Origin: a virus
Reading direction: 5' to 3' (one strand)
IMG/VR virus record: IMGVR_UViG_3300010883_000137
Location: 1 to 37,595 of that record
DNA: 37,595 bases
Shown here: positions 3,940-37,595 of the stretch, one piece after another
Layout: every line of letters begins with the position of its first letter
Position numbering within the stretch: the first letter of the stretch is position 1
Program-made: the position numbers and the translations under genes
Notes under the pieces: model-generated
What the model saw: only the letters and a program-made list of their open reading frames with translations
Databases searched by the model: none
Told to the model about the DNA's origin: nothing

Positions 3940-5062
3940 TAAGCCTAAAAAATATCGTAAAACCAACGGTGAGTACGGTAAAAGATTAAGGTTAACTCCA
4001 CAAGAAGAGGATTTAATTCAAGAAAGCCGTGCTTTATCGGTAGAAAATGTAAACGAAAACTCAGCTTTAACTCTTCATTTAAAAGACAGAGGTATAAGTA
4101 AAAAAGATATTGTTAGTGTAAAACATTGGCAAAGTGCTTCTGGTGAATATAGATTCTCAATTGTAACTAAAGAGGATTTAGGAATGCAAGAAAAAGATAT
4201 ATTTGATAAAGTAAAATCTTTTATAACTAAATACTCTCCTGCTTATCCATCTATAAGACATGAAAATAAAAAACAATCTCCTCATTTATTAATAATAAAT
4301 CCAGCTGACATACATATAGGTAAATATGCTCATAAAAAAGAAACAGGCGAAAGTTACAACACACCCATTGCAATTAAAAGAGTTATTGAAGGAGTGCAAG
4401 GCTTAATAGACAAATCAAAAGGATTTAATATTGAAAAAGTATTATTTTGCATTGGCAATGATGTTTTGCATATTGACAATGTTTACGGTACTACTACAAA
4501 AGGAACCCCTCAAGACACTGATGGTAAATGGTGGGAGCATTACGAAGCTGCTTTATCTCTTTATGTTAATTGTGTAGAAATGCTAAGAGAAATAGCGCCC
4601 GTAGACGTAATACATAGTATGAGTAATCACGATTATCAATCTGGATTTCATTTAGCACACACTTTACAAGCTTGGTTTAGACACGCTCAAGATGTTACTT
4701 TTGACGTCAGTGTAGCTCACAGGAAATATTATACTTACGGAAAGTCATTAATAGGTTTAGAGCATGGAGATGGTGCAAAAATGGATAATTTACCCTTGTT
4801 AATGGCACAAGAGAAACCTTTACTCTGGTCTAAAACAAGCAGAAGATATTGGTATTTACATCATATTCATCACAAAGTTAAACACAAGTGGAGAGATGGT
4901 AAAGACTTTATAGGAGTTACTGTGGAGTATATGCGCAGTCCGTCTTCAGCTGACAGCTGGCACGCAAGAAAAGGCTATACAGGTGCTCCTAAGGCTGTTG
5001 AAGGCTTTCTTCACCATAAAGAGTATGGTCAAGTAGCTAGACTAACTCATTACTTTGATTAA
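3929..5062 (+). CDS. Calcineurin-like metallophosphoesterase
   Basis: Metal-dependent phosphoesterase of the calcineurin-like fold. In phages this fold is found in SbcD/Mre11-type nucleases and in phosphatases; the substrate here is unknown. The five metal-binding blocks appear in order: DIH at residues 127-129; GND followed by HID at 176-183; SNHD at 232-235; a histidine in LEHGDG at 277-282; and LHHIHHK at 310-316 in the position of the family's GHxH. The first 115 residues are a basic N-terminal extension that may bind DNA. The gene is last in the + strand operon, overlaps the previous gene by 11 bases, and its stop shares bases with the stop of the convergent giant gene. At 377 residues it appears complete. 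Confidence 0.8.
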   Translation: MKSDKPKKYRKTNGEYGKRLRLTPQEEDLIQESRALSVENVNENSALTLHLKDRGISKKDIVSVKHWQSASGEYRFSIVTKEDLGMQEKDIFDKVKSFITKYSPAYPSIRHENKKQSPHLLIINPADIHIGKYAHKKETGESYNTPIAIKRVIEGVQGLIDKSKGFNIEKVLFCIGNDVLHIDNVYGTTTKGTPQDTDGKWWEHYEAALSLYVNCVEMLREIAPVDVIHSMSNHDYQSGFHLAHTLQAWFRHAQDVTFDVSVAHRKYYTYGKSLIGLEHGDGAKMDNLPLLMAQEKPLLWSKTSRRYWYLHHIHHKVKHKWRDGKDFIGVTVEYMRSPSSADSWHARKGYTGAPKAVEGFLHHKEYGQVARLTHYFD

Positions 5063-8000: not shown

Positions 8001-11000
8001 CTTCTTTTTCAAAAGCCTCTTGATTGTTAGCTTCTTGCTGTAAATCTTGTGGAGCTTGATTAGGGTCCTTGTTAGCTACTTGATTTATATTTGCGTCTGT
8101 TGCCTCTAACCCCGTTAATTCTGTAAATCTTTTTTTAGCATTTTCTTTAGACGGGTTTTTTCTTTTCTTTGAAGCGTCAGGTAATTTTTTTGTTGGATTA
8201 TTTTTCATCTCCTCAACTAACATGTCAGTTGTAATGTCTATACCTAAATCAGAAGACATTTCTTGAGCAATAATATCTAAATCTAATCCTGTAGGCGTAA
8301 TCCATTTAAAAGATCTTTTATCTTTAGGTAGGGTATTTTTGTCGCCAAATCTATCAAAAGATTTTTTGTTTACTGTATAATCTCTAAATTTTTGTTTCCA
8401 TGGTTGTTCGCTATCCGGATCAGCTTCAAAATCGTTTTCTAAATTTTCTATTAATTTAGCTATTTGAGAAGGGCTTTCGGAATTATTTATTATTTCATCT
8501 GCATAATCATTTTCATTTATATTTTCATTCGGTACATAATCTTCATTTTTAAATTGCGTTTGCTCAATATAATCAGCTTGTTCTTTTCTATTAGCTTTTC
8601 TTGTTTTACCAGACTTATTGTTAGTAATACTTATAACCCCATCAACAAGACTTAATGTATTATTTTTATTTAATGACGATGTTATTTTCTTTTCGGTTGT
8701 CTCGGTTGTCTCATTGGCTTTGGTTTCGACGGAGCTTTCTGTGGTAGTTCCTGGAATATCACTGGATACTCCTTCATCCACTTCTGAAACAACTTGGGTT
8801 GTGTCCCCTTCAGTTTCAGATACTGTGCTTGACTCTTTATTGGCATCTTTTATTTCGTTTATTTTTTTATCTATATTTATTTTATTAAGTTCAATAGGTG
8901 CTAGCCCATCTTTTTCTCTTTTTATATTTTCTTTTTCAATTTGATTTATTGCAGTTTCTTTAGAAACTTCTTTATTTTGTTCTTTTATTAAAGCGTCAAC
9001 ATCAGCTACATCTTTATCCATTAAAGATTGTATTTGCTGATCTATGTCTGTAATTTTTTTGTCCATTTCTAATTTTAAAGGACCCTCTAAACTTTTTTTA
9101 TCATCTATTAAAGATTTTCTTCTATATAATAATTCAGCCATAGGCGTTATATTTTCAGAAACTTTTACCATCCCCTTCACTGTGTTGTTAGCAGCAGCCA
9201 TATTATAAAGCTCTCCATACGATTGAGCTGCATTTTCTTTAGAAATAAAATTTTCTTGTTCTAATTTTAACAAAGTTTCTCTTGCTTTTTTCATATCATT
9301 TGATAAAAATTTAACAAGATCAGATCGTTTATTTCCTTTAATTAATTGATTAGCTCCTAAACCAGAAGTAGCGGCTAAAGTTAAAGCTGATACTTCATAT
9401 ATTTCTCCTAATTTAAATTCAGCGGACCTAACTGTTTCTCCTAAATCATAGTTAATTAATGTGTTTATTCCTTTTTCTGCAGCGTATACTCCGAGCTCTT
9501 CAATTTGCTCTTTTACCGCTTCCTTAGTTAAGCCCCTCAACTTTCTATTTAATTCTTTTGTTGAAAATTCTTTTAAATTTTGTTTATTTAATACAAAATC
9601 AAGCATTTGTGCTTTTATTGATCGATTGTTTTTTAAAATCTTTGTATTCGATCCCATTAACCCAGACATAATTCCATCTAAAGTAGATATTGCATTTCCA
9701 TATATTATAGCTCTATCGTACGCATCAGTTTCGCTCATCCCAGCTATCATTAAATCCTGTTGTACGCCTTGAACATTATTTGCCATACTGCTTGTAAATG
9801 CAGCTAATCCCATTCCCATTGATGGACTAAACCCTGTTTTAGTTGAAATCCTTTTTCCCGTTCTAATAAGGCCAAACATATGCATTATAGTACTAGCAGT
9901 TGCAGGTACAAATGTGCCTGCTGTAGTATTAGTACTTGTTTCTTTAACATTATTTGAAGCTTTTTTTATTTCATAAATTTCTTTATCGGAAATAATTCCA
10001 TCCATCCAAACATTAGTTTTTTCATCTAATACTCGTCCATCCTCTGTAACTAGATATAATTCCCCTTGGTAAGAAACTTCTTTTCCTCTAGCAAAAACAT
10101 CTCTCTCAGTTGTTCCTATTTCACTTTGTTGAACGATTCTATTAACGTCAAGCAATTGTTCTGTTACTCCCGCAAATATACCTTTTGACTCGAAATTTTT
10201 TGGAGTAATTACTTGAAGTGCTTGATCAAAAAACGATGGAACTGCCGCAAATATGGGTAGCGTAAAATTATTAATTCCTTCCGCTGCTGCCATAGCTGTT
10301 TCGCCTACAAGATGACCAAAAGCAGTAGCATTATCATCTCTAGCAACATAGTACTTTCTCATTCTTTTCTTTAATTGAGCATCTCCCCTTTTGTCCCAAT
10401 GTTCATAATAATTTGGAAAATTTTCTTTTATTAATTCAGGATTATTTAAATTATTAATTGCACGAAATAACACTGTTTGGTATTGTTGTTCTTTTGTTCT
10501 TAACCTTACATATTCATCAGGGTCTTGAGTTTTTTTAAGTTGTTGTTCAATTAAAGATAAATCTCCGGATAATTTTTGTATTTTAGAAGTTTTAAAGGCT
10601 ATTACTTTTTGTAATTGTTTTTCTTCTATAAGAAGAATATCATCCAGCTGGCTTGTACTAAATCCATACTTTCCAAACCTGTACATCATGCTTTCTTTCG
10701 TGTATTGCTTTTTGGTAAAATCAATAAATTCTTGAACGTTAATACCTTCTTTGTTTAATTGACTTTTATTAATATTAGCTCCGTATTCTAATAAATCCGA
10801 ATTAATTTCTGAAGATGATTGATATTTATATTTATAATCAATATCTTGTAAGTCTGGGCTTTTCATATTTATCTGAAAACTATCATTAGCTTCGTTATCT
10901 TGAATAATTGCCAAAGCTAACTCATACTCATTAGGAACATCTAAGGGTTCATTTGGGCCATCTAAATCATATTCTCCGTATGTTTTTTTATCTCTGAATA

Positions 11001-11697
11001 CGGTGGAGCCATCAGGCAATTTTATTAATCCGTTTTTTTCATCTAAACCCTCGCGTAACTTATTTACTATATAATTTTCATCTAAAGTCGGAAATGTGAA
11101 TTGACCATTGTCACCCTTCTCAGCTGTATAAATTTGGCGGTTTTTATAATATTTGGCTTGTAACCATTGTGCTTTACCAGTAGATGACTGAGAGTTGTTA
11201 TATGATTGATCGAATGTTTCATTTTTTCCGTTAACTTTAAAAGTTACAGGAATTTTTTCTGTCCAAAGGGGGTTTTTTTTATGATCCTCAATGTTCTGTT
11301 GTATTGCTGCATTTATGTCTTCCTGTGGTAGCTTAAAATTCCTATTATACTCATTTTGCGGAATTACATTTGGGGTTTCTGGGATTGTTAGGATATCCCG
11401 AGAAATATCTATGTCTTTATAAGACTCTAGTATATCCGAAGAATTTTCCTCTGAAGTAGATTCCCCAGTGTTTGGGCCCCCAGAAAAGTTGGATTGATCT
11501 TTTTTTTTTATTCCAACATTTGTTCTCCAAGTTTCAATGTCGCTTTTTGTATACTTCTTGTCTGTAAGGTAAGAATGAACATTGTTTTGTATTTCATCAC
11601 TACCTGAAAAATTAGATTTCCAAGTTTCAAAATCACTTTTGGTTGCGCCATCCTTAGTTAGCGTGTTCCATATATTTTCAAGAATTTCATCGTCCAT
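5059..11697 (-). CDS. Giant internal virion (ejection) protein, polyvalent LPD38-like
   Basis: The largest gene here, 2212 residues, last in the late strand. It probably encodes a packaged protein ejected into the host with the DNA, in the position of T7 gp16. It opens with two copies of a short repeat (residues about 9-30 and 40-61) built around TKSDFETW and TKSDIETW. Several hydrophobic segments follow near residues 470-500 and 590-680. A long hydrophilic Ser/Thr/Glu/Lys-rich linker covers about 930-1250. The C-terminal part carries a YVPL block (about 1442), LSPEFVVTNYIRD (about 1620) and a segment with NFNQSG and FFNASVQG (about 1787-1810). That set resembles the large polyvalent-protein-associated domain LPD38, recognised from memory. 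No transglycosylase or protease site is visible. The virion role is inferred from order and size. Confidence 0.7.
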   Translation of the reverse strand: MDDEILENIWNTLTKDGATKSDFETWKSNFSGSDEIQNNVHSYLTDKKYTKSDIETWRTNVGIKKKDQSNFSGGPNTGESTSEENSSDILESYKDIDISRDILTIPETPNVIPQNEYNRNFKLPQEDINAAIQQNIEDHKKNPLWTEKIPVTFKVNGKNETFDQSYNNSQSSTGKAQWLQAKYYKNRQIYTAEKGDNGQFTFPTLDENYIVNKLREGLDEKNGLIKLPDGSTVFRDKKTYGEYDLDGPNEPLDVPNEYELALAIIQDNEANDSFQINMKSPDLQDIDYKYKYQSSSEINSDLLEYGANINKSQLNKEGINVQEFIDFTKKQYTKESMMYRFGKYGFSTSQLDDILLIEEKQLQKVIAFKTSKIQKLSGDLSLIEQQLKKTQDPDEYVRLRTKEQQYQTVLFRAINNLNNPELIKENFPNYYEHWDKRGDAQLKKRMRKYYVARDDNATAFGHLVGETAMAAAEGINNFTLPIFAAVPSFFDQALQVITPKNFESKGIFAGVTEQLLDVNRIVQQSEIGTTERDVFARGKEVSYQGELYLVTEDGRVLDEKTNVWMDGIISDKEIYEIKKASNNVKETSTNTTAGTFVPATASTIMHMFGLIRTGKRISTKTGFSPSMGMGLAAFTSSMANNVQGVQQDLMIAGMSETDAYDRAIIYGNAISTLDGIMSGLMGSNTKILKNNRSIKAQMLDFVLNKQNLKEFSTKELNRKLRGLTKEAVKEQIEELGVYAAEKGINTLINYDLGETVRSAEFKLGEIYEVSALTLAATSGLGANQLIKGNKRSDLVKFLSNDMKKARETLLKLEQENFISKENAAQSYGELYNMAAANNTVKGMVKVSENITPMAELLYRRKSLIDDKKSLEGPLKLEMDKKITDIDQQIQSLMDKDVADVDALIKEQNKEVSKETAINQIEKENIKREKDGLAPIELNKINIDKKINEIKDANKESSTVSETEGDTTQVVSEVDEGVSSDIPGTTTESSVETKANETTETTEKKITSSLNKNNTLSLVDGVISITNNKSGKTRKANRKEQADYIEQTQFKNEDYVPNENINENDYADEIINNSESPSQIAKLIENLENDFEADPDSEQPWKQKFRDYTVNKKSFDRFGDKNTLPKDKRSFKWITPTGLDLDIIAQEMSSDLGIDITTDMLVEEMKNNPTKKLPDASKKRKNPSKENAKKRFTELTGLEATDANINQVANKDPNQAPQDLQQEANNQEAFEKEENRKKEQYEDFDPAKDVISDSDRDSNNDNKEKPDTYFQRAKDYLNEQASIRYTQFVDKYSGVRKLQKAIENFTGKNQKDNSNFDKSEKVVYGKIRNKLEKFNKSMSNFLFKLNNKGISTKEFDDYLYAKHSLDRNKTVRERGSDNDDGSGMTDKEANDILKALQKKFGDKMSDLETAADFIYKTNRETLDMQLKSGLLSKKAYDNMLKNKWETYVPLMGFAENDPKKAKENKSGKPTGSGLQAGKSKTKMTGRKTKAQSPIASIMQRRTDAIMNIDKNNVLVKLFNMLKGNPDTNQYAFYNEGNRKKEMVRDPNTGNKIEVEMSPNDMRKDPGMVTVMVNGVENFIDFVADPSIGTILRTGLGVDAEQTNAVLKNSRKILNFMRKVYTTLSPEFVVTNYIRDIQTGVLNAIADKDIPLFSKNMAKTVTDLVMNSGKSFKTIRAVTLGKTQDADGNTLSDAELKKKGYNVEMVKYYDDFLAEGGQTGYGYTQSLDQIKKDVDAIENPTNFKKFSKSLNNVIDSFNNAAENSTRLSAYIMAKKDGMTNQEAAALAKDLTINFNQSGTQQYASALYLFFNASVQGTVRFGKAIGISNFQDTKAGEGNKILNAFGVKDKKLNPAQKLAGVLTSFSAMIAFANISFGDEDEDGVPYYDEIPESIKRRNIIIMRPGTGGKYIKIPLPYGYNIFHNIGTGTIDSAVGDKTAGEFATNLSVSALEAFSPVSLSDAKGVDGGIINSTPSALRPIVEVWANQNYFGQQIANEKFSDTDTTPDSQLGRYTTSSFKKISRFLTEVANEKSGGTVTSSGNFDFNPDNIDYLMQQYLGTLYTLPKLAADSYQEAISEKPYKFNPTKIPIVRRFFGEQNRFADQQSFYDRLVFLKGVDEQLKGIEAGKQKEKFSLDTYGSARGLLNASKKMKKILKKTRDNIKLIRNQDNMSRQDYIDIKMLEKAQDEIYDNFNKEFLQIFKRYSTPNNPVLENN

Positions 11698-26724: not shown

Positions 26725-29160
26725 TTATCTTGGTTCAAATTCTGCTAAATCAAAGCCATCTAAACTATCTTCGTTAGATTCAAAAGAAACAGGCGGTAAA
26801 TTGTTGTTACGTTGTTGTATTAATTGTGACTGCTCTGTATTAGCTTGACTTAACCTTTTGTCTTTTGCTTTTTCTCTATTATCTTCTCTTTGCTGTAGGT
26901 TTTGTACTTCCATGCCTTTTAATTGCATTTGCATTTTAAACTCTACTTGCATTAATTTTTCTTTTAATTGTGCTTCAGCATTAAGTTTTTCTATTTCAAA
27001 AGCAATAACTGCTTGAGATTGCTTCATGTTTATTTGAGCCTCCATTTGAAGTTTTTGGCTTTCTTGTTGCGATTGCATTTGCTGTAATTGCATTTTGGTT
27101 TGAGCCTCCATTTGTTGTTTTTGCATTGCTGCCTGCTGGTCTTGCTCTTGCTTTCTTACACGTTTTACTTTTAATAATTGATTTGCAAGTTTTAAGTTTC
27201 TTAATTCACGGATATCAATAGCGTCTTCAAGATTAATATCTTGTTTAGATAAAGCCATTTGTATATTTTGTTCTAATTGTGCTTTTTCTTCTTCATCAGG
27301 AGCTACTTCTATAAATATACCAAAGTCATATATATATAAGTCTTTTACGTCTTCTAATATACCAACGTTATACTTTCCAATTTGCATTGTAAATTCTTCT
27401 GCAAAATCTGCATACTCTAATACATCAGCAATTCTTAAAGATACGCCCTCTGCCATTCTTTGCGTTATAGCTAAACTAGCTTCTAATATATGTCTTGTTG
27501 CAGTGTTGCTATTTAATGCCGCTAATTTTTGAACTCCAACTAATGAATTTGGATCTGGAGTAGAACCATCTCTAGCTTCGTTTAATCCTGTTACTCCACG
27601 TAACATTCCTAAATAATGATTATAACTTGCAATTAAACTTTGCATTTTTGCCTGACCACTGCTTGAAGTTAATTGAGTAATTGGAACTCTTGCGTTATTA
27701 AACTCACCATCTTGAGTGTAGCTTCTTCCTATTACACTACCTGTTTGAAAATATAATTTTAATGCATCTTGCGGATTATATGCTGCACCTGTGCCTAAAT
27801 CTACTTCATTTAACCCATCTGCATCTATAAATACACCGTCTGGAACTACTTTAGATATTACTTGTTGTAATTTTAAATGAGTTATTTGTATTAAGTCAGC
27901 AAAACTAATCATTCGTCTAACTAAAGATTCTATATTTCCTTTGTACATTCTAGGGGCACACGCCACGTAGTTAGGCATTGCATGTTGAGATGCAGACTTT
28001 GGCCTAACCATGTTTTCCATCATTTTCCATTGTAGCATTGTGCTAGTACCCATTACCATAACTCCTTCATACCAAACATCTATAGTTTTAGATATTTTTT
28101 TAAATTTACCTTCTTCCATTTTTTCTTCTGGAGGATTAAATTCAGAGTCTTTTTCAATCATTCTAGCACCACCTCCTTCTAATTCTTTTTTCTTATAATT
28201 AAAAGTATTGGTAGTTTTATAGTTAAAATATAATAAAGTTGCTGTGTCTCTAGAAAATACACTATTTTCATACATCTGAGCTACATTAAAATAATCATAC
28301 CATGATTGGCTGTATTGAGAAATTTCTCTTAAATCATCGCTAGTTAATGTAGGGTCTATTTTTAATAATTCATTAATAGCAACTGTTTTAATTTCTCCCC
28401 AATAAAAACAATCTTTAAAATGAGGATCTTCTGAATAGCTGTATACCATATTAGCTGGATCTACATATTCAATTCTTACACCATCTCCGGCTAAAAACAT
28501 ATGTTTGCTTATTCCTATACCTAAAACAGTTAAATCATAATCAACTCTTTTTCTTACTTCATTATAATGATTGTCATCTAATATTGTGTTAATTGCAGTC
28601 TCTTCTGCTATCTCTATCCCTGGCTTATAATTAAGCTGCATATATAGAGCTAATTCTTGATCGTTATTAGGTAATTCGTCAGGGTCTGTAGAAAAAGGAT
28701 TTACTCCAAAGCCTTGTTGTATTTGATTTAATAATGGCTTAGCTACCATATCTCCTTCAATCATATCTTGAAATTGAGATCTTTTTTCAGCTGACATAGC
28801 ATCTTGAGCGTAAGCTTGAACTTTAAATAAACGATCAGACATTCCGTTTACAACAATGTCGACAAATTTAGGTATAATAGGCACTGGAGTCCAGTCTAAA
28901 TTTAAATAACTTAAATCTCCATCAATAGCTAATTCGTTTTTATATTTAGCTACTGATTGTTCTCCTCTAGCATATAATCTTAATCTATGAAAATCTTGCC
29001 ATTGGCTGTAAAATCTACATTGATTTCCACTTTTTCTAAACCACTCGTATTGTATGGATTGTCCTATTTGTAATCCAAACTCGTAGGTTGCTTTTTCCGA
29101 ATCAGAACTAAAATTATCCGGGAACCCAGCTGGATTAATATCTACTTTTACGTCTTTCAT
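26725..29160 (-). CDS. Portal protein
   Basis: Forms the dodecameric ring at one capsid vertex through which DNA is packaged and released. It directly follows the large terminase gene, sharing one base in TAATG. At 811 residues it is close to crAss-type portals. Residues 50-120 contain FYSQWQDFHRLRLYARGEQS and LNLDWTPVPIIPKFVDIVVN, a combination I recognise from crAss-like and other Bacteroidetes podovirus portals. The central part (about 540-640) includes the helical GLNEARDGSTPDPNSLVGVQ block. The last 140 residues are a long Gln/Met/Lys-rich coiled coil, probably the C-terminal barrel facing the head interior. No frameshift is seen. Confidence 0.85.
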   Translation of the reverse strand: MKDVKVDINPAGFPDNFSSDSEKATYEFGLQIGQSIQYEWFRKSGNQCRFYSQWQDFHRLRLYARGEQSVAKYKNELAIDGDLSYLNLDWTPVPIIPKFVDIVVNGMSDRLFKVQAYAQDAMSAEKRSQFQDMIEGDMVAKPLLNQIQQGFGVNPFSTDPDELPNNDQELALYMQLNYKPGIEIAEETAINTILDDNHYNEVRKRVDYDLTVLGIGISKHMFLAGDGVRIEYVDPANMVYSYSEDPHFKDCFYWGEIKTVAINELLKIDPTLTSDDLREISQYSQSWYDYFNVAQMYENSVFSRDTATLLYFNYKTTNTFNYKKKELEGGGARMIEKDSEFNPPEEKMEEGKFKKISKTIDVWYEGVMVMGTSTMLQWKMMENMVRPKSASQHAMPNYVACAPRMYKGNIESLVRRMISFADLIQITHLKLQQVISKVVPDGVFIDADGLNEVDLGTGAAYNPQDALKLYFQTGSVIGRSYTQDGEFNNARVPITQLTSSSGQAKMQSLIASYNHYLGMLRGVTGLNEARDGSTPDPNSLVGVQKLAALNSNTATRHILEASLAITQRMAEGVSLRIADVLEYADFAEEFTMQIGKYNVGILEDVKDLYIYDFGIFIEVAPDEEEKAQLEQNIQMALSKQDINLEDAIDIRELRNLKLANQLLKVKRVRKQEQDQQAAMQKQQMEAQTKMQLQQMQSQQESQKLQMEAQINMKQSQAVIAFEIEKLNAEAQLKEKLMQVEFKMQMQLKGMEVQNLQQREDNREKAKDKRLSQANTEQSQLIQQRNNNLPPVSFESNEDSLDGFDLAEFEPR

Positions 29161-31406
29161 TAATTGTTTATTTCGCTAAGCATTCCCTTGTTGTTGTACT
29201 GTGCAAAGTTAATGCTTATTTTTGACACTTTTTGTTGCGGAGTATAGAGATGTTTTTGATTTGCCATAATAGCTAGACCGGAACTTATTGACGCATCAAA
29301 CTTAGTTCTATTGTTTATATCAAACCTTGCCCAATCTTCTAATGTTCTACTAAAATACATACTACCCATATCATCTTGCTCTCTATACACTCCTTCTAAA
29401 TCCATTCCCACATGCTTTTCTATATAACTTTCTATTGCTGCTGCGTGAGATTGTTTTACGTCTTCAGAACTATTTGGTATACCGCCTAATTCTTTTTCAG
29501 TTTTAGAAAGTTTGTTAAATGTTTTGTCTGGTCTGTTTAAACTATAACCTCTATAACCTCTGTTTTTAAAATGATACAATAATCTTGGTTTGTTATTTTC
29601 ACACAAAATAGGCATACCATAAAAGATACAAGCCATTAACACTTCTTCAAAAAATATTTCAGCTGTTTGAGGGCGTGCAACATATTCTAAAAAAAATTCA
29701 TTACTAGGCGCATTATCCATGTTAAATTTTGTTAAACCATGTAAAGCGCCGTTGGATCCATTCCCTCCAACTGTGCCTGAAATATCATAAGAATCACACC
29801 CAAAAGAACCTAAATGCTCATTACCTGGCGTAATTCTACCATTAAAGATACGTTTATTATTTTGAAGGTTTTTCTCTGGCAACCACGAAACAATAAATCT
29901 ACCTCTAGAGTCTGGTGTCCATATTACTTCAGAGTCTTTTTCTCCATTTTTCCAAGTAAATCTACCCTTGGTTATAAAACGTTCTTTTATTAATGAATCA
30001 TTATAATCTATTTGTTGATATATTTTGGTAAGGTTAAATAAAGACTGTTTACTTTCGTCTCTAAATGCATGAGATTCAGTTCTTGGAAACTGCCTATAAA
30101 ATTCATTTAAACTATCTGCATCTGATTTTAAAGAATCAACTTCATTTGTCCAGTAATCAATTGCTCCTATTTTTATTATTTCATTATCAACTCCTATTAT
30201 TTTTTCTTTAGGTGTTTTAAATATTGGCTGACCGTATATATCTATATATCCTTCAAAATTCCATTCCATAGGAATAAATAAATTATATAAACCACTTTTA
30301 GTTTGACCATTTTGATTACGTTTATATACGCTTGAATCATTAAATAATTTTTTAAAATTAGCCCCTCCCTTGTCTAATGCATTAGATGTAGACCCCATCA
30401 TGCATTTTCCAATAATTCTACTACCTAGTCTTAAACATGTTTTGGTAACAGCCCAGTTATTTAATATGTTATCTGGCCTCATCCATTTTCCAGATTCATC
30501 GTGTATTAATAGTTTTAATTTTTCTCCATCATAAGAGTTGTCTGATGTATTTTTCCAATCAATAGTAGTGTCTAGCCCTTGAACATCCTCACTATCTGTT
30601 TCATACATATTTTTTTTAGTGATTTTAGACGCTGGGACTCTGTATGCTAGCTCTGTTTTAGGCTTATCCATACCATCTTGCACTGGTTTAAAAAAGAAAG
30701 GAAAATTATTAGAAATAGGAACTACTTTGTCTGTAAACATTTTTTTTGCATCTGCCCCTGTTTTTGATAATATACCTATTCTTGCATCTTTATTTATTGT
30801 TGCTGTATTTACTGCTTCACAAGAACCCATAAAAGAAAACCCTGAACGTCTAATTTTTAGATAGCACATGCCAAATGACCTATCATCTGCTTTGCAAGCT
30901 TCCCAAAATATATAAAATATTCTATTTGCTTCTCTGTAATCAGGGTGACCTACATCAATTTTAGTCCATTGCAAATACATGTAATGAGTTCCTGTTATGT
31001 ACGTAGGATTTCCATTGTTATAAAACCAAAAACCTTGTTCTCTTTTATCAAACTCTTCTTCTATATAATCAACCCACTTTACTTTAAAATGCTTTGGCAT
31101 ATCGTGCCATTGAAATATAGAGGCTATTTTAGAAAGTTCTTTTGTGTAAGGAAAAGCCTCCCAATATTGTTCTTTTTTTTTATTACTTCTTTTGTGTATT
31201 TTTTTAGGAGCTAATGGTAATCCAATTTTTAAACCATTTATTTCACAAATTTCTCCAACTGTTCCGTCTTTGCTTATTACTACTAAATCATGCTTAGAAT
31301 CATAACCATATACCCAAGATTTATTTAAGTTTCTTTTTATAAAAACTTGTTTAGGTATATAGCTACTTAATGTTCTGTATATGTTATTTAGATCGTCTTT
31401 CTGCAA
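29160..31406 (-). CDS. Large terminase subunit (packaging ATPase-nuclease)
   Basis: Motor protein that cuts concatemeric DNA and pumps it into the head through the portal. ATPase lobe: a Walker A-like segment KIRRSGFSFMGS at residues 184-195, in which the usual P-loop lysine is a phenylalanine; Walker B LLIHDE at 299-304 with catalytic Asp303-Glu304; and the coupling motif GKCMMGSTSN at 333-342. Nuclease lobe of RNase H type: FGCDSYDISG with Asp538, an acidic ILCENN near 600-605, and SSEDVKQSHAAAIESYI at 646-662. At 748 residues it is long for a terminase but usual for crAss-like ones. The start is a TTG at 31406; no in-frame ATG lies between the upstream stop and this point. It overlaps the preceding gene by 23 bases. 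Confidence 0.85.
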   Translation of the reverse strand: MQKDDLNNIYRTLSSYIPKQVFIKRNLNKSWVYGYDSKHDLVVISKDGTVGEICEINGLKIGLPLAPKKIHKRSNKKKEQYWEAFPYTKELSKIASIFQWHDMPKHFKVKWVDYIEEEFDKREQGFWFYNNGNPTYITGTHYMYLQWTKIDVGHPDYREANRIFYIFWEACKADDRSFGMCYLKIRRSGFSFMGSCEAVNTATINKDARIGILSKTGADAKKMFTDKVVPISNNFPFFFKPVQDGMDKPKTELAYRVPASKITKKNMYETDSEDVQGLDTTIDWKNTSDNSYDGEKLKLLIHDESGKWMRPDNILNNWAVTKTCLRLGSRIIGKCMMGSTSNALDKGGANFKKLFNDSSVYKRNQNGQTKSGLYNLFIPMEWNFEGYIDIYGQPIFKTPKEKIIGVDNEIIKIGAIDYWTNEVDSLKSDADSLNEFYRQFPRTESHAFRDESKQSLFNLTKIYQQIDYNDSLIKERFITKGRFTWKNGEKDSEVIWTPDSRGRFIVSWLPEKNLQNNKRIFNGRITPGNEHLGSFGCDSYDISGTVGGNGSNGALHGLTKFNMDNAPSNEFFLEYVARPQTAEIFFEEVLMACIFYGMPILCENNKPRLLYHFKNRGYRGYSLNRPDKTFNKLSKTEKELGGIPNSSEDVKQSHAAAIESYIEKHVGMDLEGVYREQDDMGSMYFSRTLEDWARFDINNRTKFDASISSGLAIMANQKHLYTPQQKVSKISINFAQYNNKGMLSEINN
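29204..29211 (-). promoter_or_regulatory. -7 box TAACTTTG inside the terminase 3' end, portal promoter
   Basis: Core CATTAACTTTGCA lies within the last 17 codons of the terminase gene, 43 bases before the portal ATG. Its flank (AAAAATA two bases upstream of the core) matches that of the box at 37307 almost base for base. It would give the portal a separate transcript from terminase. Confidence 0.5.
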
Positions 31407-31662
31407 ATCCTTGTTTACTATTATTGTCTTGTTCGCTTTCTCCAGTTAGTAATTCATTTTCTAATTCTATTCTGGTTAATATTTCAAATGCATCAAATAT
31501 TGCTAATTTTTTTGTAGCTGCAGCATTTTTTAACCTGTCTGGAGCTAATTCATCGTCAGCTTCATATTTAATTATATCTTCTTTTGCTACTTTTATTAAT
31601 TGTGTAACAGCCTGTCTTCCAGCTTTTATAATTTCCATTTTCAATTGTAAAGAATTCATCAT
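31384..31662 (-). CDS. Putative small terminase subunit (92 aa)
   Basis: A 92-residue, mainly helical protein directly upstream of, and overlapping by 23 bases, the large terminase gene; this is the usual place of the small subunit that recognises the packaging site. Visible segments are AGRQAVTQLIKVAKEDIIKY (15-34) and APDRLKNAAATKKLAIFDAF (40-59), with a hydrophilic tail. There is no clear helix-turn-helix, so the call is by position and resemblance to proteins in the same place in other marine phages. It starts in an ATGATG overlapping the stop of the preceding gene. Confidence 0.5.
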   Translation of the reverse strand: MMNSLQLKMEIIKAGRQAVTQLIKVAKEDIIKYEADDELAPDRLKNAAATKKLAIFDAFEILTRIELENELLTGESEQDNNSKQGFAERRSK

Positions 31663-32222
31663 AACACTATAGTTATATTGTTAGTAAACATTCTATAAAG
31701 TTTTTCTCCATTAATATAAAATGGATATTCACTTTCTGGCTCAAATATTACTTCATCTCCTTCGTTTACATTTAAATCTTTTAAATCGTTATTACCATAT
31801 ACTACTGTGCCTGTTAATGGCTCTTCAGATCCTGGTTTTAAAATATAAGAATCTTTTAATTTAGAGGGTTTTACAAAACAATATTTAGAATGAGTATTCC
31901 ATTTTTCATTATTGTAATATAAAAAAAACTGATCAAAATCTATAAAATATAAATCTTCTTTAAAAAAACTTCTACCACTTTTTTCTCTTCCTCTCATGTC
32001 ATAATATATTTTAAATACATTATGGTGGACTAATAAAATATAACCAGGTTTTATATTTCCTGTATACCCTAATGGAACCGATACCACTTTAGCAAAACGA
32101 TTTGTTGTAGTGTGATCTTCTTGTGAAACACTAGTAATAAAATCTATATCTCCTATTTTTTTTATGTTGTCGTATCTCCTCCCCTTTAAAGGTTTGGTAA
32201 TAAAATAAAAAGGCGACCTCAT
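31659..32222 (-). CDS. Possible tandem GroES-like co-chaperonin-fold protein
   Basis: A 187-residue beta-rich protein that reads as two similar halves. First half, about 42-115: AKVVSVP, IKPGYILLVHHNVF, then DFDQFFLYYN. Second half, about 116-187: GTVVYGN, VNEGDEVIFEPESEYPFYIN, then EKLYRM. The order small strand (xxVVxVP or GTVVYG), then PGD/EGD-like turn with a hydrophobic strand, then a closing strand resembles the GroES/Cpn10 barrel. Phages such as T4 encode a GroES substitute (gp31) for capsid folding, which would suit a gene beside head genes. The match is by eye and weak at the GroES mobile loop, so a different beta-barrel virion protein is possible. Translationally coupled on both sides. 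Confidence 0.4.
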   Translation of the reverse strand: MRSPFYFITKPLKGRRYDNIKKIGDIDFITSVSQEDHTTTNRFAKVVSVPLGYTGNIKPGYILLVHHNVFKIYYDMRGREKSGRSFFKEDLYFIDFDQFFLYYNNEKWNTHSKYCFVKPSKLKDSYILKPGSEEPLTGTVVYGNNDLKDLNVNEGDEVIFEPESEYPFYINGEKLYRMFTNNITIVL

Positions 32223-32446
32223 TAAAAATTAATATTATATTCGATTGATACTGGCATGTTAGAATTAAATTCTTTCCATAGCAATATTTCATTTTTTTGC
32301 TCTATCCATATTTTTATAGAGTCATTACTTTGAATTTTTTTTATTAAGTGTATTTTGTAGTTTCCGCCTAAGACATCTTGACCTACTATGTAATGCATAG
32401 CACTAGACTTGTAGTCTGCTCCTATGGAAATTTTTCTTATATCCAT
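32222..32446 (-). CDS. Small conserved-looking protein of unknown function (74 aa)
   Basis: A 74-residue protein beginning MDIRKISIGADYKSSAMHYI, then a beta-rich remainder. The opening resembles short proteins seen near terminase genes of marine phages (from memory), with no known function. It starts 30 bases after the tail-fibre stop and shares one base (TAATG) with the next gene. Confidence 0.5.
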   Translation of the reverse strand: MDIRKISIGADYKSSAMHYIVGQDVLGGNYKIHLIKKIQSNDSIKIWIEQKNEILLWKEFNSNMPVSIEYNINF

Positions 32447-32476
32447 GATAAATTAAATTTTATTTAACTATTATAC

Positions 32477-35400
32477 TTATGTTAAATCTACTGTCATATC
32501 TGCAGAATTTAAAATTCTGTATTTAATATTATAAAACAATGTACTATCTCCTCCTGATGGATTTTGAGCATTGCTACTAAGCACTATTTGCCCGTTTACT
32601 ATAGGTGAGTTTGATACATCTTTATAATAGTTCCAATTATCTACAAGACCCATTGTTAAAGTACCTGAAACAGAATTACCTAACACTCCTGAAGTTGAAT
32701 TACGATATTTAAAACTAGGGAATATGTTGTTTGAATAGTCAGAAGTAACAAAATTATAATGAACTCCTACTGAATCTACAACAATTATTTTATTAGCACC
32801 TGGCGCAGAAATTATTGGCACTGGGTTGGTAAACATATTTAATATTTGAGATGACATTATTTGACCTTGAATAACTCGAGTTCCATCTAACCCTAAAGTA
32901 TAATTAGGAATATTTAATATTCCATTTGAAAAACTAGAAACTCCCGACGTACCTGTGGTAGTTAAACTAGTAACTGTACCTCCGCCACTACCAGACAATC
33001 CTACTCTAACCCAAATGGCACTTCCTGCAACACCTGTTTGCGTACATACATAAATATTATCTGAAGTATATCTAATTTCTCCAATTGTTCCTGTATCTGT
33101 TAAGTTGGCAGGAGCTGTATTTAATGCTGTTAAATTTAATTGACCATTTACATTTATAGAGCCACTGATTGAAACTCCAGACGATGTTGTGTTAAGTTTT
33201 TCAACATTGTTGTGAAAAAGTTGAACGCTTCCTTCTGCATTTGCTTGAAGCATTCTCTCGTCTGTATCACTTTTAAGGCTTATTTCGTTTGCACCACTTA
33301 TTATTAAATTACCAGTTCCTATTTCTTTAATATAACTATTACTTCCATCATGATATATTGATAGATCTTCTCCATTTCCAAATGTAATAGCGCTTAAGTC
33401 TGGGAATTTAGTATAATGTAATCCGTTTTCTACAGCTAGTGACCCATCTAATCTAAAATATTCTATTGTGGCTCCAGCACCATTATCTGATTCAAAAATC
33501 ATAGAACCATTGTCGGTACCTTGTCTGAATATTAAAGTACCCGCTGTATTTATAAATAAGTTTTCCCCGCCATCTGCTGGAGCTGGATCATGATAAATTC
33601 TCATGTCATTGCCAGTCCCTAATTGAAACTGAACATTATCACCCATAATTAATGGGCCTGTCATTGTTCCTCCGCCTAACGGTAAGTAAGATGTTCCTCC
33701 ACTAGCATCTATCCAAGATGTAGTAGTTCCTGTAGAAGATAAAATTTGTCCCGATGTACCTGCGTTTCCTGCTGAATCAAAAATTTCAGCTGAAGCTTGG
33801 AATGATCCTGCTACGTTTAATTTACTTCCACTGGCAACTGAATTTGTAAACTCCAATCCTAAAGCTCTTGATCCATCTGTTGTTCCTACTCCTATATCAA
33901 ATAATGAGTCTGTGTTTCCTGCTACGTTATATCTACCTATAGAAAATTGCTGTACTTGATCTGCTATAGTTCCTTTACCTGCTGCAAAAGAATCTTCACC
34001 ACTTGCTACTGTAGCTTCACCTGTTGCTGTTGAGTTAGGTCCGCTCGCTAACGTATTATCTCCTAAAGCAGTAGAGTGATCTCCTGTTGCATCTGTTAAG
34101 TACCCCATTGCTGTAGATGCTTCTGCTGTTGACTCTGTATTTTGTCCTGAAGCAAAAGAACTTATTCCGCTAGCTATTGTAGTGTTGTTCATTGCTGCCG
34201 CCATAGCGCCGCTAGCTGTTGTTAGTTTTCCAGAAGCAAACGATGAAGCGCCACTTGCTGTAACTTGATCTCCTATTGCTATTGCTACGGTAGAAGAAGA
34301 AACTGCTGTGTTTCCTATTGCTACTCCGTAGTCGTTTGATGTCGTGCTGTCAACTCCCATTGCAAAAGAATTAACTCCTGCTGCGGTAGTCGTACGACCC
34401 ATAGCTACTGATGCGCTCCCGCTAGCAGTTGTTGTTGTACCTGCAGCAAATGAGTCTTGTGCGCTTGCAATTGTATTTGATCCTGCAGCAAATGATGAAG
34501 CTCCACTTGCCGTTGTAGTGTGTCCAGAAGCAAATGATGAAGCTGCACTTGCAATTGTAGTGTCTCCAAATGCTACAGATTGTGCCCCTTGTGCTTTAGC
34601 TACATTACCAAACGCAAATCCGTTTAGCGCCGTTCCTTCAGATAATGTTCCTCCTGTAAAAGAACTTATTCCGCCAGCTGTTGATAATGAAGAATCTCCT
34701 ATAACAAAAGATTTAAATCCAGCTGCTACAGTACTAAAACCATGAGCTGAAGAATTATCTCCCGATGCCGTAACGCCTTTACCCATTGCGTAAGCCGCAA
34801 CTCCACTTGAGGTACAGTCTGCAAATGCTACTGAAAAAGTATTACTTGCTGTAGAAGCTCCAAATGCCATAGCCCCTGATCCGGAAGCCGTACATCCCGA
34901 TCCTATTGCTACTGCATTTAGTCCGCTTACCGTATGTGTTAATCCTAATGCTATTCCATTACTACCAGAAGTTAAAACATTGTCTTTACCTATAATAGTA
35001 CAACTGCTACCTGTAGATGAATTATTTGCGCCAAATATAAAATTATAAGTTTGACTTGCTGATGTTGTAATTCCTGATCCTGCTAAAAAATTTAATGTTC
35101 CTACATCAGTAATGTTAGCTAAATCAAATGCTCTAATTGTGTTGTTAGTTAAATTTACTTCAAATCCAGCTACTCCGCCTGATCCGAATTTTATATTGTT
35201 TACAGAACTTGTTGATTGCGATATAAGCGAATTACCTAAAGTTGTTGAAGCTCCACTACCCGTCCACATAGCTAAAATATCTCCGTTTCCAGATCCACTA
35301 ACACTACCTACATTGTCATTTATCCAAGCGGTAGTTGTTCCTGTACTAGATAGTAATTGTCCAGCAGTTCCTGACGCTCCTGATGAATCTAATAATTTTC

Positions 35401-37024
35401 CCGTAGCTCTTATATCACCTGTTACGGTTAATGAACTAACGCCCCCTGTATTAATAAATCTTAATCCTGTTAATCTTGATGCATCCGAAGAACCAACTCC
35501 AATAGAAAACAATTCACCTGTTACAGATGATGAAGAATTATATTTTCCTATTACAGTTTGATACATTGATGAGCTTGTAGTTCCTAAGCCTAATGCAACA
35601 GAATAATTTTGTCCTGATACTGATGAATCTCCTACAGCAAAAGAATAATCACCTGATGCTGTGCTAGATGTTCCTAGCGATATAGCGCCTATGCCTGATG
35701 CTGCTGATAAATAACCAAAAGACAAAGAATTTGCTCCAGATGCTACTGATTGTCTACCTATTGCTAACGCGTTTAAAGCAGTAGCTTGATTAGTTTGACC
35801 TATTGCTATTGCATATGCAGATGATGCTAAGTTACTTGTTCCTATAGCATGTGTGTGATCTCCACTTGCCGTGTTATTACTACCTACAGTAAATGAGTAT
35901 ATCCCACTTGCCGTATTATTATAACCTAATGCTGTTGCGCTTGTTCCACTTGCAATTGTGTCTTTACCAAAAGCTACTGATTGAGGTCCTGAAGCTAAAA
36001 CAGTGTTTCCTGCTGCAAAAGATTCTGCTCCTGACGCAGTTGAACTAAGGCCCATTGCTGTTGCATGTAATGCGCTTGCGGTTGTGCTTTTCCCTGTTGC
36101 TAAACTGTAATTTGCAGAATTAATATTAGACTCATTTAAAGATACGCAGTTAGTAAATCCGCTTGCAGTTGTTCCTGCTAAAATAACATTACCTATATCT
36201 GTGTAAATATATCCAGCTCCCGACACTCTTGTTATAGGTGAATTTCCTAAAGTTGTTGAGCCTATCCACATAGGTATTGTGCTTGCCGTACCTGAGCCTG
36301 CCAAAATAGATGTATTGTCTACTTTTTGCCAAACTCCACTATCGCTATACACAGCCCAGTCTCCAATCTTCCAATCTGTTTCTCCGTCTAAATCTACAGA
36401 ACCTGCTACATTTACTATGTAGTAATATCCTGCAGCTACAGTTGCCAGCAATAAATCTGGATTACCTCCGTCTCCTGCTGCCCCGCCTTCCGCTTGAGTT
36501 CTTGCGTCCCAAGTACCTTGATAAGATAGTCCAGCCGCTACTTGATCCACCCATCTAATTCCTGAGAATGTTGAGGATAAAATCTGTCCAGAAGTTCCTG
36601 AATTTCCTAAATCATCTAATAATGTTGAGTTTAGTTCTAAAGTTGAGTTTGTTACAACTGCTCCGTTAAAAGTAGCAGAGCCAGTAAATGTTGCAGCTGA
36701 AGCCACTCCTAAAGTATTATTTAAAAGTGTCGCCCCAGTTACAGTTAGTTGACTTGCAAACGATACCGCTCCACTTACGCTTAATGTGCTACTTATTGTT
36801 TGCACACCTACTAAAGTAATGTTTCCGGTAAGGTTTATATTGTTTGTCGCAGTATTTCCAGCTGCTAATACTTCTGCTAAAGTATTATCTGGATCTAACA
36901 TAGCAATGCTAAGCGCCGTACATGTTTTAGTTGCTAGATAATTATCTGCATCTGTTAAAACTAAATAGTCTGCTGCTGCAGGTACTATATTTCCGTATGC
37001 GCTAGTATTACTAATTTTACTCAT
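32477..37024 (-). CDS. Tail fibre with YadA/Hep_Hag-type repeats (1515 aa)
   Basis: Long trimeric-type fibre, expected to contact the host surface. The N-terminus (MSKISNTSAYGNIVPAAADY, then a KTCTALS segment) probably anchors it to the virion. Two repeat blocks (residues about 305-495 and 673-1032) consist of near-14-residue units AxGxxTxASGxxSxA, the pattern of YadA-like adhesin heads. Each block is followed by a related stretch with IGVG, then GTxGQxLSSTG and a Trp. Residues about 1110-1290 carry IYHDG-type repeats common in marine phage fibres. The C-terminal 140 residues (IISAPGANKIIVVDS onward) form a distinct tip domain. It lacks an S74 chaperone at its own end; that domain sits in a separate gene upstream. 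Confidence 0.8.
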   Translation of the reverse strand: MSKISNTSAYGNIVPAAADYLVLTDADNYLATKTCTALSIAMLDPDNTLAEVLAAGNTATNNINLTGNITLVGVQTISSTLSVSGAVSFASQLTVTGATLLNNTLGVASAATFTGSATFNGAVVTNSTLELNSTLLDDLGNSGTSGQILSSTFSGIRWVDQVAAGLSYQGTWDARTQAEGGAAGDGGNPDLLLATVAAGYYYIVNVAGSVDLDGETDWKIGDWAVYSDSGVWQKVDNTSILAGSGTASTIPMWIGSTTLGNSPITRVSGAGYIYTDIGNVILAGTTASGFTNCVSLNESNINSANYSLATGKSTTASALHATAMGLSSTASGAESFAAGNTVLASGPQSVAFGKDTIASGTSATALGYNNTASGIYSFTVGSNNTASGDHTHAIGTSNLASSAYAIAIGQTNQATALNALAIGRQSVASGANSLSFGYLSAASGIGAISLGTSSTASGDYSFAVGDSSVSGQNYSVALGLGTTSSSMYQTVIGKYNSSSSVTGELFSIGVGSSDASRLTGLRFINTGGVSSLTVTGDIRATGKLLDSSGASGTAGQLLSSTGTTTAWINDNVGSVSGSGNGDILAMWTGSGASTTLGNSLISQSTSSVNNIKFGSGGVAGFEVNLTNNTIRAFDLANITDVGTLNFLAGSGITTSASQTYNFIFGANNSSTGSSCTIIGKDNVLTSGSNGIALGLTHTVSGLNAVAIGSGCTASGSGAMAFGASTASNTFSVAFADCTSSGVAAYAMGKGVTASGDNSSAHGFSTVAAGFKSFVIGDSSLSTAGGISSFTGGTLSEGTALNGFAFGNVAKAQGAQSVAFGDTTIASAASSFASGHTTTASGASSFAAGSNTIASAQDSFAAGTTTTASGSASVAMGRTTTAAGVNSFAMGVDSTTSNDYGVAIGNTAVSSSTVAIAIGDQVTASGASSFASGKLTTASGAMAAAMNNTTIASGISSFASGQNTESTAEASTAMGYLTDATGDHSTALGDNTLASGPNSTATGEATVASGEDSFAAGKGTIADQVQQFSIGRYNVAGNTDSLFDIGVGTTDGSRALGLEFTNSVASGSKLNVAGSFQASAEIFDSAGNAGTSGQILSSTGTTTSWIDASGGTSYLPLGGGTMTGPLIMGDNVQFQLGTGNDMRIYHDPAPADGGENLFINTAGTLIFRQGTDNGSMIFESDNGAGATIEYFRLDGSLAVENGLHYTKFPDLSAITFGNGEDLSIYHDGSNSYIKEIGTGNLIISGANEISLKSDTDERMLQANAEGSVQLFHNNVEKLNTTSSGVSISGSINVNGQLNLTALNTAPANLTDTGTIGEIRYTSDNIYVCTQTGVAGSAIWVRVGLSGSGGGTVTSLTTTGTSGVSSFSNGILNIPNYTLGLDGTRVIQGQIMSSQILNMFTNPVPIISAPGANKIIVVDSVGVHYNFVTSDYSNNIFPSFKYRNSTSGVLGNSVSGTLTMGLVDNWNYYKDVSNSPIVNGQIVLSSNAQNPSGGDSTLFYNIKYRILNSADMTVDLT
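33929..35008 (-). repeat. Second YadA-type repeat block in the tail fibre gene
   Basis: About 25 degenerate units of some 42 bases, coding for the 14-residue motif with ASG and SFA/AxG. Codons differ between units, so the DNA is not an exact tandem repeat; protein periodicity is the clear signal. Long reverse-strand open frames here are a by-product of the repeat. Confidence 0.7.
35540..36112 (-). repeat. First YadA-type repeat block in the tail fibre gene
   Basis: About 13 degenerate 42-base units coding for the same 14-residue motif (for example TASGIYSFTVGSNN, then TASGDHTHAIGTSN). It is shorter than the second block. Confidence 0.7.
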
Positions 37025-37324: not shown

Positions 37325-37595
37325 TTAAATGTTATTTTCTAATTGTGTTATTTTGTTTTCTAATGTTTCTACTTTTTCAACTAAGTCTTTTATTGCTTTC
37401 ATTAAATATGGAACCATACCAGATGGATTAAATCCATAGTAAGGTTTTTCGTCTTCACCAAGAAACTGAGGATATGCTTCTGGGAAATTACTAACTTCGT
37501 TTTGCGCAATAAAACCTAATGTCTTATCTTCGGAAACATCTTGAGTTTTAAATCTAAATTTCTTAGGCTCTAAAGCTTTAAATTTACTTAGAGTA
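37325..37595 (-). CDS. C-terminal S74 endosialidase-type chaperone domain, 5'-truncated
   Basis: Read in the - strand from the window edge, 89 residues end at TAA 37327-37325. Only the last part of the gene is inside and no start codon is available. Segments seen: KFRFKTQDVSED, then TLGFIAQNEVSNFPEAYPQF, then FNPSGMVPYLMKAIKDLVEK, and a final leucine-zipper-like helix (KVETLENKITQLENNI). This is the pattern of the intramolecular chaperone (peptidase S74) domain that folds phage fibres and spikes and then cleaves itself off. The N-terminal part, outside the window, should be a fibre or spike. The catalytic Ser/Lys region of S74 domains lies upstream of the visible segment, so self-cleavage cannot be judged. 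Confidence 0.7.
   Translation of the reverse strand, partial: TLSKFKALEPKKFRFKTQDVSEDKTLGFIAQNEVSNFPEAYPQFLGEDEKPYYGFNPSGMVPYLMKAIKDLVEKVETLENKITQLENNI

What the first reader, a model, noticed from the sequence alone, without database searches (positions are those of the whole stretch)
33710..36112. Large internal duplication in the tail fibre
Both YadA-type repeat blocks are followed by a similar stretch (residues about 495-570 and 1031-1105): FSIGVG or FDIGVG, then SR-LGL-F-N, then DSxGxxGTxGQxLSSTGTTTxW. The whole unit, adhesin head plus connector, therefore seems duplicated, with the second repeat block about twice as long. It would build a fibre with two adhesive heads in series. Such repeats could vary in number among related phages.
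Basis: seen in the sequence. Interest (0 to 1): 0.5.

Follow-up and report, generated by a model that had tools for sequence, protein, structure and literature searches.

The report
Two-headed tail fibre of swappable parts
This viral gene, probably a tail fibre, carries two adhesin-like heads in series, each set between the same short linker pieces; close relatives carry one such head, a different part or none at that spot, so the fibre looks like a kit whose parts are exchanged.

Summary
The 1515-residue ORF at 32477-37024 (-) has two YadA-like head blocks (about 14 and 26-27 repeats of 14 residues), each followed by a similar connector (38 of 76 identical; 0 of 1000 shuffles reach the score). 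"One duplicated unit" is half the story. The connector has a cap that goes with the heads and a linker (LB) that occurs three times here. LB and a second linker (LA) also alternate in headless 637-699 aa versions of the same gene (15 of 62 complete relatives). The heads sit in two of those slots. Sister phages (~85% DNA identity nearby) show exchange: L084/L085 keep both heads with one repeat fewer and no tip; L176, 98.6% identical to L084 on its 3' side, keeps head 1 but has another roll in place of head 2, one breakpoint lying in LB; L095 has only a 175-aa anchor-plus-tip fibre. More distant relatives also have short C-terminal YadA-like rolls at this locus, so heads are not unique to this clade. 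Binding and trimer are inferred. A new variant of a known kind.

The parts
32477..37024 (-). probable tail-fibre gene, 1515 aa
   Evidence: open frame; syntenic with fibre genes next to the GroES-like and terminase genes in relatives
36890..37024 (-). N-terminal segment, probably the virion anchor, residues 1-45
   Evidence: shared with ORFs upstream of the terminase in relatives, 86% over 36 aa with L095
36548..36625 (-). linker B copy 1, residues 134-159
   Evidence: profile match; regex
36305..36541 (-). knob domain (YQGTWDA...), residues 162-240
   Evidence: the stretch 140/147-265 is 44-51% identical to headless fibres L097, L103, L104, L112
36233..36301 (-). linker A copy 1, residues 242-264
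   Evidence: profile match; similarity to copy 2, 0 of 1000 shuffles
35522..36112 (-). head 1, about 14 repeats of 14 residues, residues 305-501
   Evidence: Pfam YadA_head, lag-14 identity 0.38, AlphaFold beta-roll matching BpaC Z 22.7
35402..35563 (-). cap of head 1, about residues 488-541
   Evidence: alignment with cap 2 and with caps of other fibres
35321..35398 (-). linker B copy 2, residues 543-568
   Evidence: profile match
35222..35299 (-). linker A copy 2, residues 576-601
   Evidence: profile match; alignment A4 with headless fibres
33926..35062 (-). head 2, about 26-27 repeats, residues 655-1033
   Evidence: Pfam YadA_head, lag-14 identity 0.34; no structure model made
34464..34568 (-). 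42-bp tandem array (2.5 copies, 82% matches) inside head 2: one 14-residue repeat duplicated at DNA level
   Evidence: Tandem Repeats Finder; lies in the stretch where window and L084 differ by one repeat
33791..33955 (-). cap of head 2, about residues 1024-1078
33710..33787 (-). linker B copy 3, residues 1080-1105
   Evidence: profile match
32993..33706 (-). C-terminal shaft, residues 1107-1344, with a segment (1129-1277) that has relatives in cyanophage proteins
   Evidence: 85% identical in L084; tblastn hits in cyanophages
32480..32890 (-). C-terminal tip domain, residues 1379-1515
   Evidence: 47-66% identical in L103, L104, L112 and 36% in L097; absent in L084/L085; well-predicted fold, pLDDT 90

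Best explanation
The gene encodes a modular tail fibre of a podovirus-like phage related to Flavobacterium and Cellulophaga phages. Its plan is anchor - linker B - knob - linker A - [head 1 + cap] - linker B - linker A - [head 2 + cap] - linker B - shaft - tip. Headless relatives have the same linkers and knob with 45-74 residue fillers in the same slots, so the A-slot-B scaffold does not depend on the heads and is probably older than their presence in these slots (parsimony; loss of heads is not excluded). Probably one head entered a slot and was copied to the second before window and L084 parted. Heads gain or lose 14-residue repeats, and slot contents are exchanged, with linker B as one site of exchange. 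Shown by sequence: plan, similarity, exchange, repeat difference, head 1 fold in a monomer model. Inferred: trimerisation, presence in the virion, receptor binding by the heads, order of events.
For: Connector and linker statistics. Pfam YadA_head and PDB matches to BpaC, BoaA, CbpF and YadA; model of head 1 with VIA Z 22.7 to BpaC (198 residues, rmsd 3.6) and 20.3 to YadA, unrelated left-handed helices near 9. Headless orthologues with four LB and three LA at 79-81% terminase identity; slot fillers 45-74 aa against 277 and 477 here. L084/L085: same two-head plan in two assemblies. L176 against L084: 98.6% over 1942 nt and 88% over 635 nt of head 1 and cap 1, slot 2 and most of the shaft replaced, 5' break within LB, 3' break sharp. 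L095: 175-aa anchor + tip fibre between stretches 80% and 85% identical to the window's. Pfam on the 72 ORFs next to the GroES-like gene: YadA_head in 4, the count expected from the clade members L274, L275, L276 and L084. Heads diverge most: head 1 52%, head 2 middle 44%, knob 90%, cap 2 96% identical to L084.
Against: YadA-like rolls are not confined to this clade: in the wider group fibres L125, L130 and L145 match PF05658 above its cut-off, L149 at 24.8 bits against 25, L134 weakly, and 2 of 75 further ORFs at E between 0.00082 and 0.001; my own head profile had missed them. So heads may be an old stock of the group and headless forms may be losses. The cap and linkers are not modelled reliably (pLDDT under 50 beyond residue 193). 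No tail-labelled PHROG matches this protein itself. dN/dS is below 1 in the 11 of 12 parts where it could be computed, dS near saturation, so positive selection on heads is not shown. Cap 2 scores nearly as high with L093 (91) as with cap 1 (110). L084, L085 and L176 are cut at their 5' ends, so what precedes head 1 in L176 is unknown.
Confidence: 0.72

Rival explanations
1. One reading: one tandem duplication of a unit 'head + connector' made both halves, and head 2 then grew.
For: The caps are each other's best match outside their orthologues (110 against at most 77 and 91 for the five outside caps in hand). Linker A before each head also repeats.
Against: Linkers A and B are repeated in the same order in headless orthologues, and linker B has a third copy before the knob, so the linkers do not need this event.
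Confidence: 0.3
2. The YadA-like rolls are spacers that lengthen the fibre, and binding is done by the knob or the C-terminal tip.
For: A tip domain is kept in 175-187 aa fibres without any head (28 of 62 complete upstream ORFs) and is well folded in prediction. Repeat number varies without loss of frame.
Against: L084/L085 and L176 have heads but no tip. Heads are the fastest-changing part. Titles of solved YadA-like heads name ligands (collagen for YadA, CEACAM for CbpF, immunoglobulin for EibD).
Confidence: 0.3
3. The two-block plan is an assembly artefact of a repetitive gene.
For: A contig 99.96% identical to the window (L001) ends at window 35064, right at the start of head 2, so the junction of unit 1 and unit 2 is not confirmed for this very virus.
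Against: L084 and L085 are separate contigs with the same plan; blocks and caps differ too much in DNA to be mis-joined copies.
Confidence: 0.04

Closest known systems
YadA-like head domain (Pfam PF05658; YadA, BpaC, BoaA, CbpF)
   Same: 14-residue repeats, left-handed beta-roll fold in the model of head 1
   Different: placed in the middle of a phage fibre, two in series, each closed by a cap ending in a phage linker; no autotransporter barrel matched
Marine (pelagi)phage tail fibre with a C-terminal YadA domain in a variable 'metaviromic island' (PMC3909814, passages read)
   Same: YadA-like domain in a marine phage fibre, in the part that varies between close relatives
   Different: there one C-terminal domain behind a T7-type N-terminus; here two internal heads in linker-bracketed slots, with exchange partners identified
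Domain mosaicism of phage receptor-binding proteins (PMC10684548, passages incl. part of the abstract)
   Same: recent exchange of domains in tail fibres
   Different: that study is a broad survey; here one locus with located breakpoints and a bracketing linker pair
Headless orthologous fibres (L097, L103, L104, L112) and MW202828.1 protein UOF82518.1
   Same: same locus; linkers B in all, anchor, knob and tip in the first four
   Different: no heads; UOF82518.1 has seven linker-B matches and another C-terminus
Fibres of more distant terminase relatives with a C-terminal YadA-like roll (L125, L130, L145, L149, L134)
   Same: same position about 1.2 kb before the terminase; YadA-like repeats; L130 and L134 carry the anchor
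   Different: short roll near the very C-terminus, followed by a short W.V.ING..Y end; no linker-bracketed pair of heads detected
Flavobacterium phage immuto tail spike (MW353176.1, P0002)
   Same: 14-residue head repeats followed by a similar cap FIIGNG....RSN
   Different: other shaft, no linker B after the cap

Membership tests
YadA-like head domain | 14-residue repeat recognised by PF05658 above its cut-off | tested here: met
   113.5 bits against 25, 14 stretches
YadA-like head domain | left-handed parallel beta-roll fold | tested here: met
   model of head 1 aligns to BpaC Z 22.7, YadA Z 20.3; Foldseek whole-model TM-scores for these heads were low, about 0.2-0.5; head 2 not modelled
YadA-like head domain | homotrimer | not testable with these tools
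   only single chains could be predicted
Trimeric autotransporter adhesin | C-terminal membrane barrel (YadA anchor; feature recalled) | tested here: not met
   Pfam scan at E up to 1 lists no anchor family in the 1515 aa; the C-terminus is a domain shared with phage fibres
Phage tail fibre | N-terminal segment shared with other fibre genes at the same locus | tested here: met
   anchor profile found in ORFs of 53 of 84 sources examined, the window included
Phage tail fibre | matches a profile labelled as tail protein | tested here: inconclusive
   no tail-labelled PHROG for this protein at E up to 0.01; orthologue L103 matches phrog_13892 minor tail protein and phrog_31460 tail protein
Phage tail fibre | present in virions, needed for adsorption | not testable with these tools
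   needs experiment

The most novel reading that the evidence does not exclude
The linker pair A/B is a general bracket of fibres of Bacteroidota phages: linker B is both the joint that sets chain register and the stretch of shared sequence where recombination cuts, so that binding parts are plugged in and out of slots, giving fibres from 175 to over 1500 residues at one locus of otherwise similar phages.
Probability: 0.35. Interest if true: 0.6.

Novelty: new variant of a known kind. Interest (0 to 1): 0.42.

Why it matters
It turns a repeat seen in one protein into a comparative series (no head, one head plus another roll, two heads) at one locus of closely related metagenomic phages, with an exchange between nearly identical phages whose break lies in the repeated linker. 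That makes it possible to test how phage fibres gain and lose binding parts, and whether heads or tip decide the host. Modularity of such proteins and YadA-like domains in marine phage fibres were already known.

Tried and rejected
Head profile first built out of register failed its own positive control and was rebuilt; the head counts are void. Even the rebuilt profile is insensitive: it missed the heads of L275 (= L176) and the C-terminal rolls of L125, L130, L145, L149 and L134, which Pfam finds. Two scripts failed on an empty linker seed set and were corrected. The apparent lack of 349 residues in L001 was a repeat-induced false match: at DNA level it is collinear with window 27480-35064. 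Gene conversion between linkers in L084: the two copies are 23 of 25 identical in protein but only 56 of 75 in DNA, no better than orthologues (58 and 60 of 75), so recent conversion is not supported. Similarity of the starts of the two heads is weak (1 of 1000 shuffles reaches it). Search of bacterial genomes for the cap gave 48 pattern matches and none confirmed, so the donor of the heads is unknown. Linker search of genomes: 20 of 41 pattern matches confirmed, many of them Bacteroidota. Heads in 100 linker-selected sources (selected by the linker, flanks cut at 4 kb): 7 ORFs flagged; three are this clade (L084, L175 = L085, L176); L210 and L240 pass Pfam's cut-off and L250 does not (21.7 bits); L262 is not a YadA head on reading. 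Solved-structure matches of the tip are weak (best listed TM 0.52), so no family is named for it. Antisense ORFs 34344..34745 and 35112..35561 were taken as shadows of the repeat and not pursued.

Full report
What is there. The region 33710-36112 (-) is residues 305-1105 of a 1515-residue ORF, 32477..37024 (-). At E up to 1 Pfam lists only YadA_head (PF05658, E 4e-33) and a weak beta-roll match below its cut-off. The two head blocks can be written in rows of 14 residues, about 14 rows for head 1 and 26-27 for head 2, with small shifts of register in the first part of head 2. The connectors after the heads align over 76 columns with 38 identities, score 182 against a shuffle maximum of 68; among 2346 pairs of 80-residue windows of this protein the best pair is these connectors. 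The DNA of the two connectors is recognisably similar only over the linker (77% over 83 nt), so the repeat is old.

The connector has two halves. The first (about residues 488-541 and 1024-1078) continues the roll and ends it (IG.YN....LF.IGVG..D.SR..GL.F). Similar caps follow head repeats in a Flavobacterium phage (FIIGNG....RSN) and in L210, L240 and L250, and one is found in L093. The second half is linker B (543-568, 1080-1105), present a third time at 134-159 before the knob domain. A second motif, linker A (242-264 and 576-601), stands before each head (0 of 1000 shuffles in window and in L084; 1 of 1000 for a wider cut).

Where the phage belongs. The terminase is 72% identical to that of MW202828.1 (Podoviridae sp., Manatee Spring) and 45% to Flavobacterium phages of genus Elemovirus; 89 phage records match, each covering at least 80% of the query, 68 of them Flavobacterium and 15 Cellulophaga phages. 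A host in the Flavobacteriia is therefore likely (inference).

Headless versions of the same gene. The 80 loci kept from a capped list and fetched by the GroES-like gene next to the fibre are the nearest relatives. In 72 of them an ORF of 120 aa or more ends within 1500 nt upstream (for each locus the nearest ORF with any fibre module was taken, otherwise the nearest); 8 have none. Of the 72, 62 have a stop codon upstream within the locus and 10 run off the contig. Pfam finds YadA_head in 4 of the 72; it names one, L084; L275 (= L176) matches, and L274 and L276 (= L085) carry the heads by my profile, so the four are this clade and the 62 complete ORFs have none at that threshold. Of the 62, 28 are 175-187 aa proteins made of anchor and tip, and 15 are fibres of 637-699 aa with anchor and tip and three or four copies of linker B. 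In L097, L103, L104 and L112 the order is anchor-LB-LA-x-LB-knob-LA-x-LB-LA-x-LB-tip. The window has anchor-LB-knob-LA-head 1-LB-LA-head 2-LB-shaft-tip. By order the heads fill the places of the second and third x, which are 45-74 residues long in L097, L103 and L104 and 277 and 477 here.

The wider group. That head profile is insensitive. Pfam on the 82 ORFs of 250 aa or more upstream of the terminase (listed; two of them, L104 and L112, scanned; five; 75) finds YadA_head above its cut-off in L125, L130 and L145, at 24.8 bits against 25 in L149, at 18.6 bits in L134, and in 2 more ORFs at E between 0.00082 and 0.001 (not named by the tool). In those five the roll is near the C-terminus, about 1.2 kb before the terminase, that is at the same locus, and is followed by a short end of the type W.V.ING..Y (W.I in L130). 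YadA-like rolls are thus in the stock of this phage group; what is particular to the window's clade is two long internal heads between linkers. Laminin_G_3 (16 of 75) and Peptidase_S74 (13 of 75) are the commonest Pfam parts of the other ORFs.

Exchange among close relatives. L084 and L085, about 84-86% identical to the window in the neighbouring genes, have both heads, one 14-residue repeat fewer in head 2 (with 2 residues more elsewhere in it) and end where the window goes on to its tip. The window has a 42-bp tandem array in that stretch of head 2. L176 is 98.6% identical to L084 over 1942 nt and 88% over 635 nt of head 1 and cap 1, but between these linker A, head 2, its cap, the last linker B and most of the shaft are replaced by a different roll; identity falls off through linker B on one side and rises sharply at TAPANATDAG on the other. 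L176 is cut at its 5' end inside head 1. L095, about 85% identical to the window in terminase and portal, has a 175-aa fibre: the anchor (86% over 36 aa) joined to a tip-type domain. So block number, block identity and repeat number differ within one small clade.

Divergence. Against L084 the heads are the least conserved parts (52% for head 1, 44% for the middle of head 2); the knob (90%), cap 2 (96%) and shaft (85%) are conserved; linker B1 is 25 of 25 identical in protein. dN/dS is below 1 in the 11 of 12 parts where it could be computed, with dS about 0.7-1.2, so this shows weaker constraint on heads, not positive selection; residues 1-151 could not be compared.

Structure. In the model of head 1 plus connector 1 (two sequences in the alignment) blocks of ten residues have pLDDT 67-96 over residues 1-180 and 88-96 over 81-170; from residue 194 on it is below 50. 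Foldseek puts BpaC, CbpF, YadA, AtaA and BoaA first, two matches at E up to 0.001, with low TM-scores; VIA-align gives BpaC Z 22.7 over 198 residues, YadA 20.3, against about 9 for unrelated left-handed helices. The phi29 appendage protein gp12 appears at Z 14. The tip is well predicted (pLDDT 90, mostly strands), with counterparts among uncharacterised phage proteins but only weak solved matches.

Mechanism. Most likely a trimeric fibre held by its N-terminal anchor, with rigid heads and a knob strung along the shaft at linker joints and a distal tip. Heads offer large repeated surfaces for binding; slots allow exchange. Plan and exchange are shown; trimer, virion location and binding are inferred. 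Whether one head was copied into the second slot is likely but not proven (cap scores 110 against at most 77 and 91 for five outside caps).

What is known. A YadA-like domain in a marine phage fibre, in a region under-recruited from viromes, was described in PMC3909814 (passages read). Domain exchange in receptor-binding proteins is well documented (PMC10684548, passages). Searches for YadA or trimeric-autotransporter heads in tail fibres (listings read) returned no paper whose listing describes two heads in linker-bracketed slots; the library is open-access only.

Noticed in passing
L095:374-899 compared with window 32477-37024: 175-aa mini fibre (anchor + tip) at the same locus as the 1515-aa fibre in a phage about 85% identical in neighbouring genes
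   Followed up: yes
L176:1-1932: second head slot filled by a different roll with NTxLGxxAGxxxTTGxxN-like repeats
   Followed up: partly
L125:1-927, L130:1284-6794, L145:2-1099, L149:3-1343, L134:1224-6803: C-terminal YadA-like rolls followed by a short W.V.ING..Y end in fibres of more distant relatives at the same locus
   Followed up: partly
window 37325-37594: end of another fibre gene with a chaperone-of-endosialidase-like C-terminus (Peptidase_S74, just under its cut-off)
   Followed up: no
window 31659-32222: 187-aa GroES-like protein (phrog_13932 co-chaperonin, E 8e-17) between fibre and terminase
   Followed up: partly
window 5059-11697: 2212-aa protein with an LPD38 polyvalent-protein domain
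   Followed up: no
window 35064: a 99.96% identical contig from another sample (L001) ends here, at the start of head 2; repeat-caused or variant-caused assembly break
   Followed up: partly
L117, L118, L126, L137, L157, L172: two anchor-bearing ORFs in a row: a 181-201 aa anchor + tip protein and a longer one, with linker-B matches
   Followed up: no
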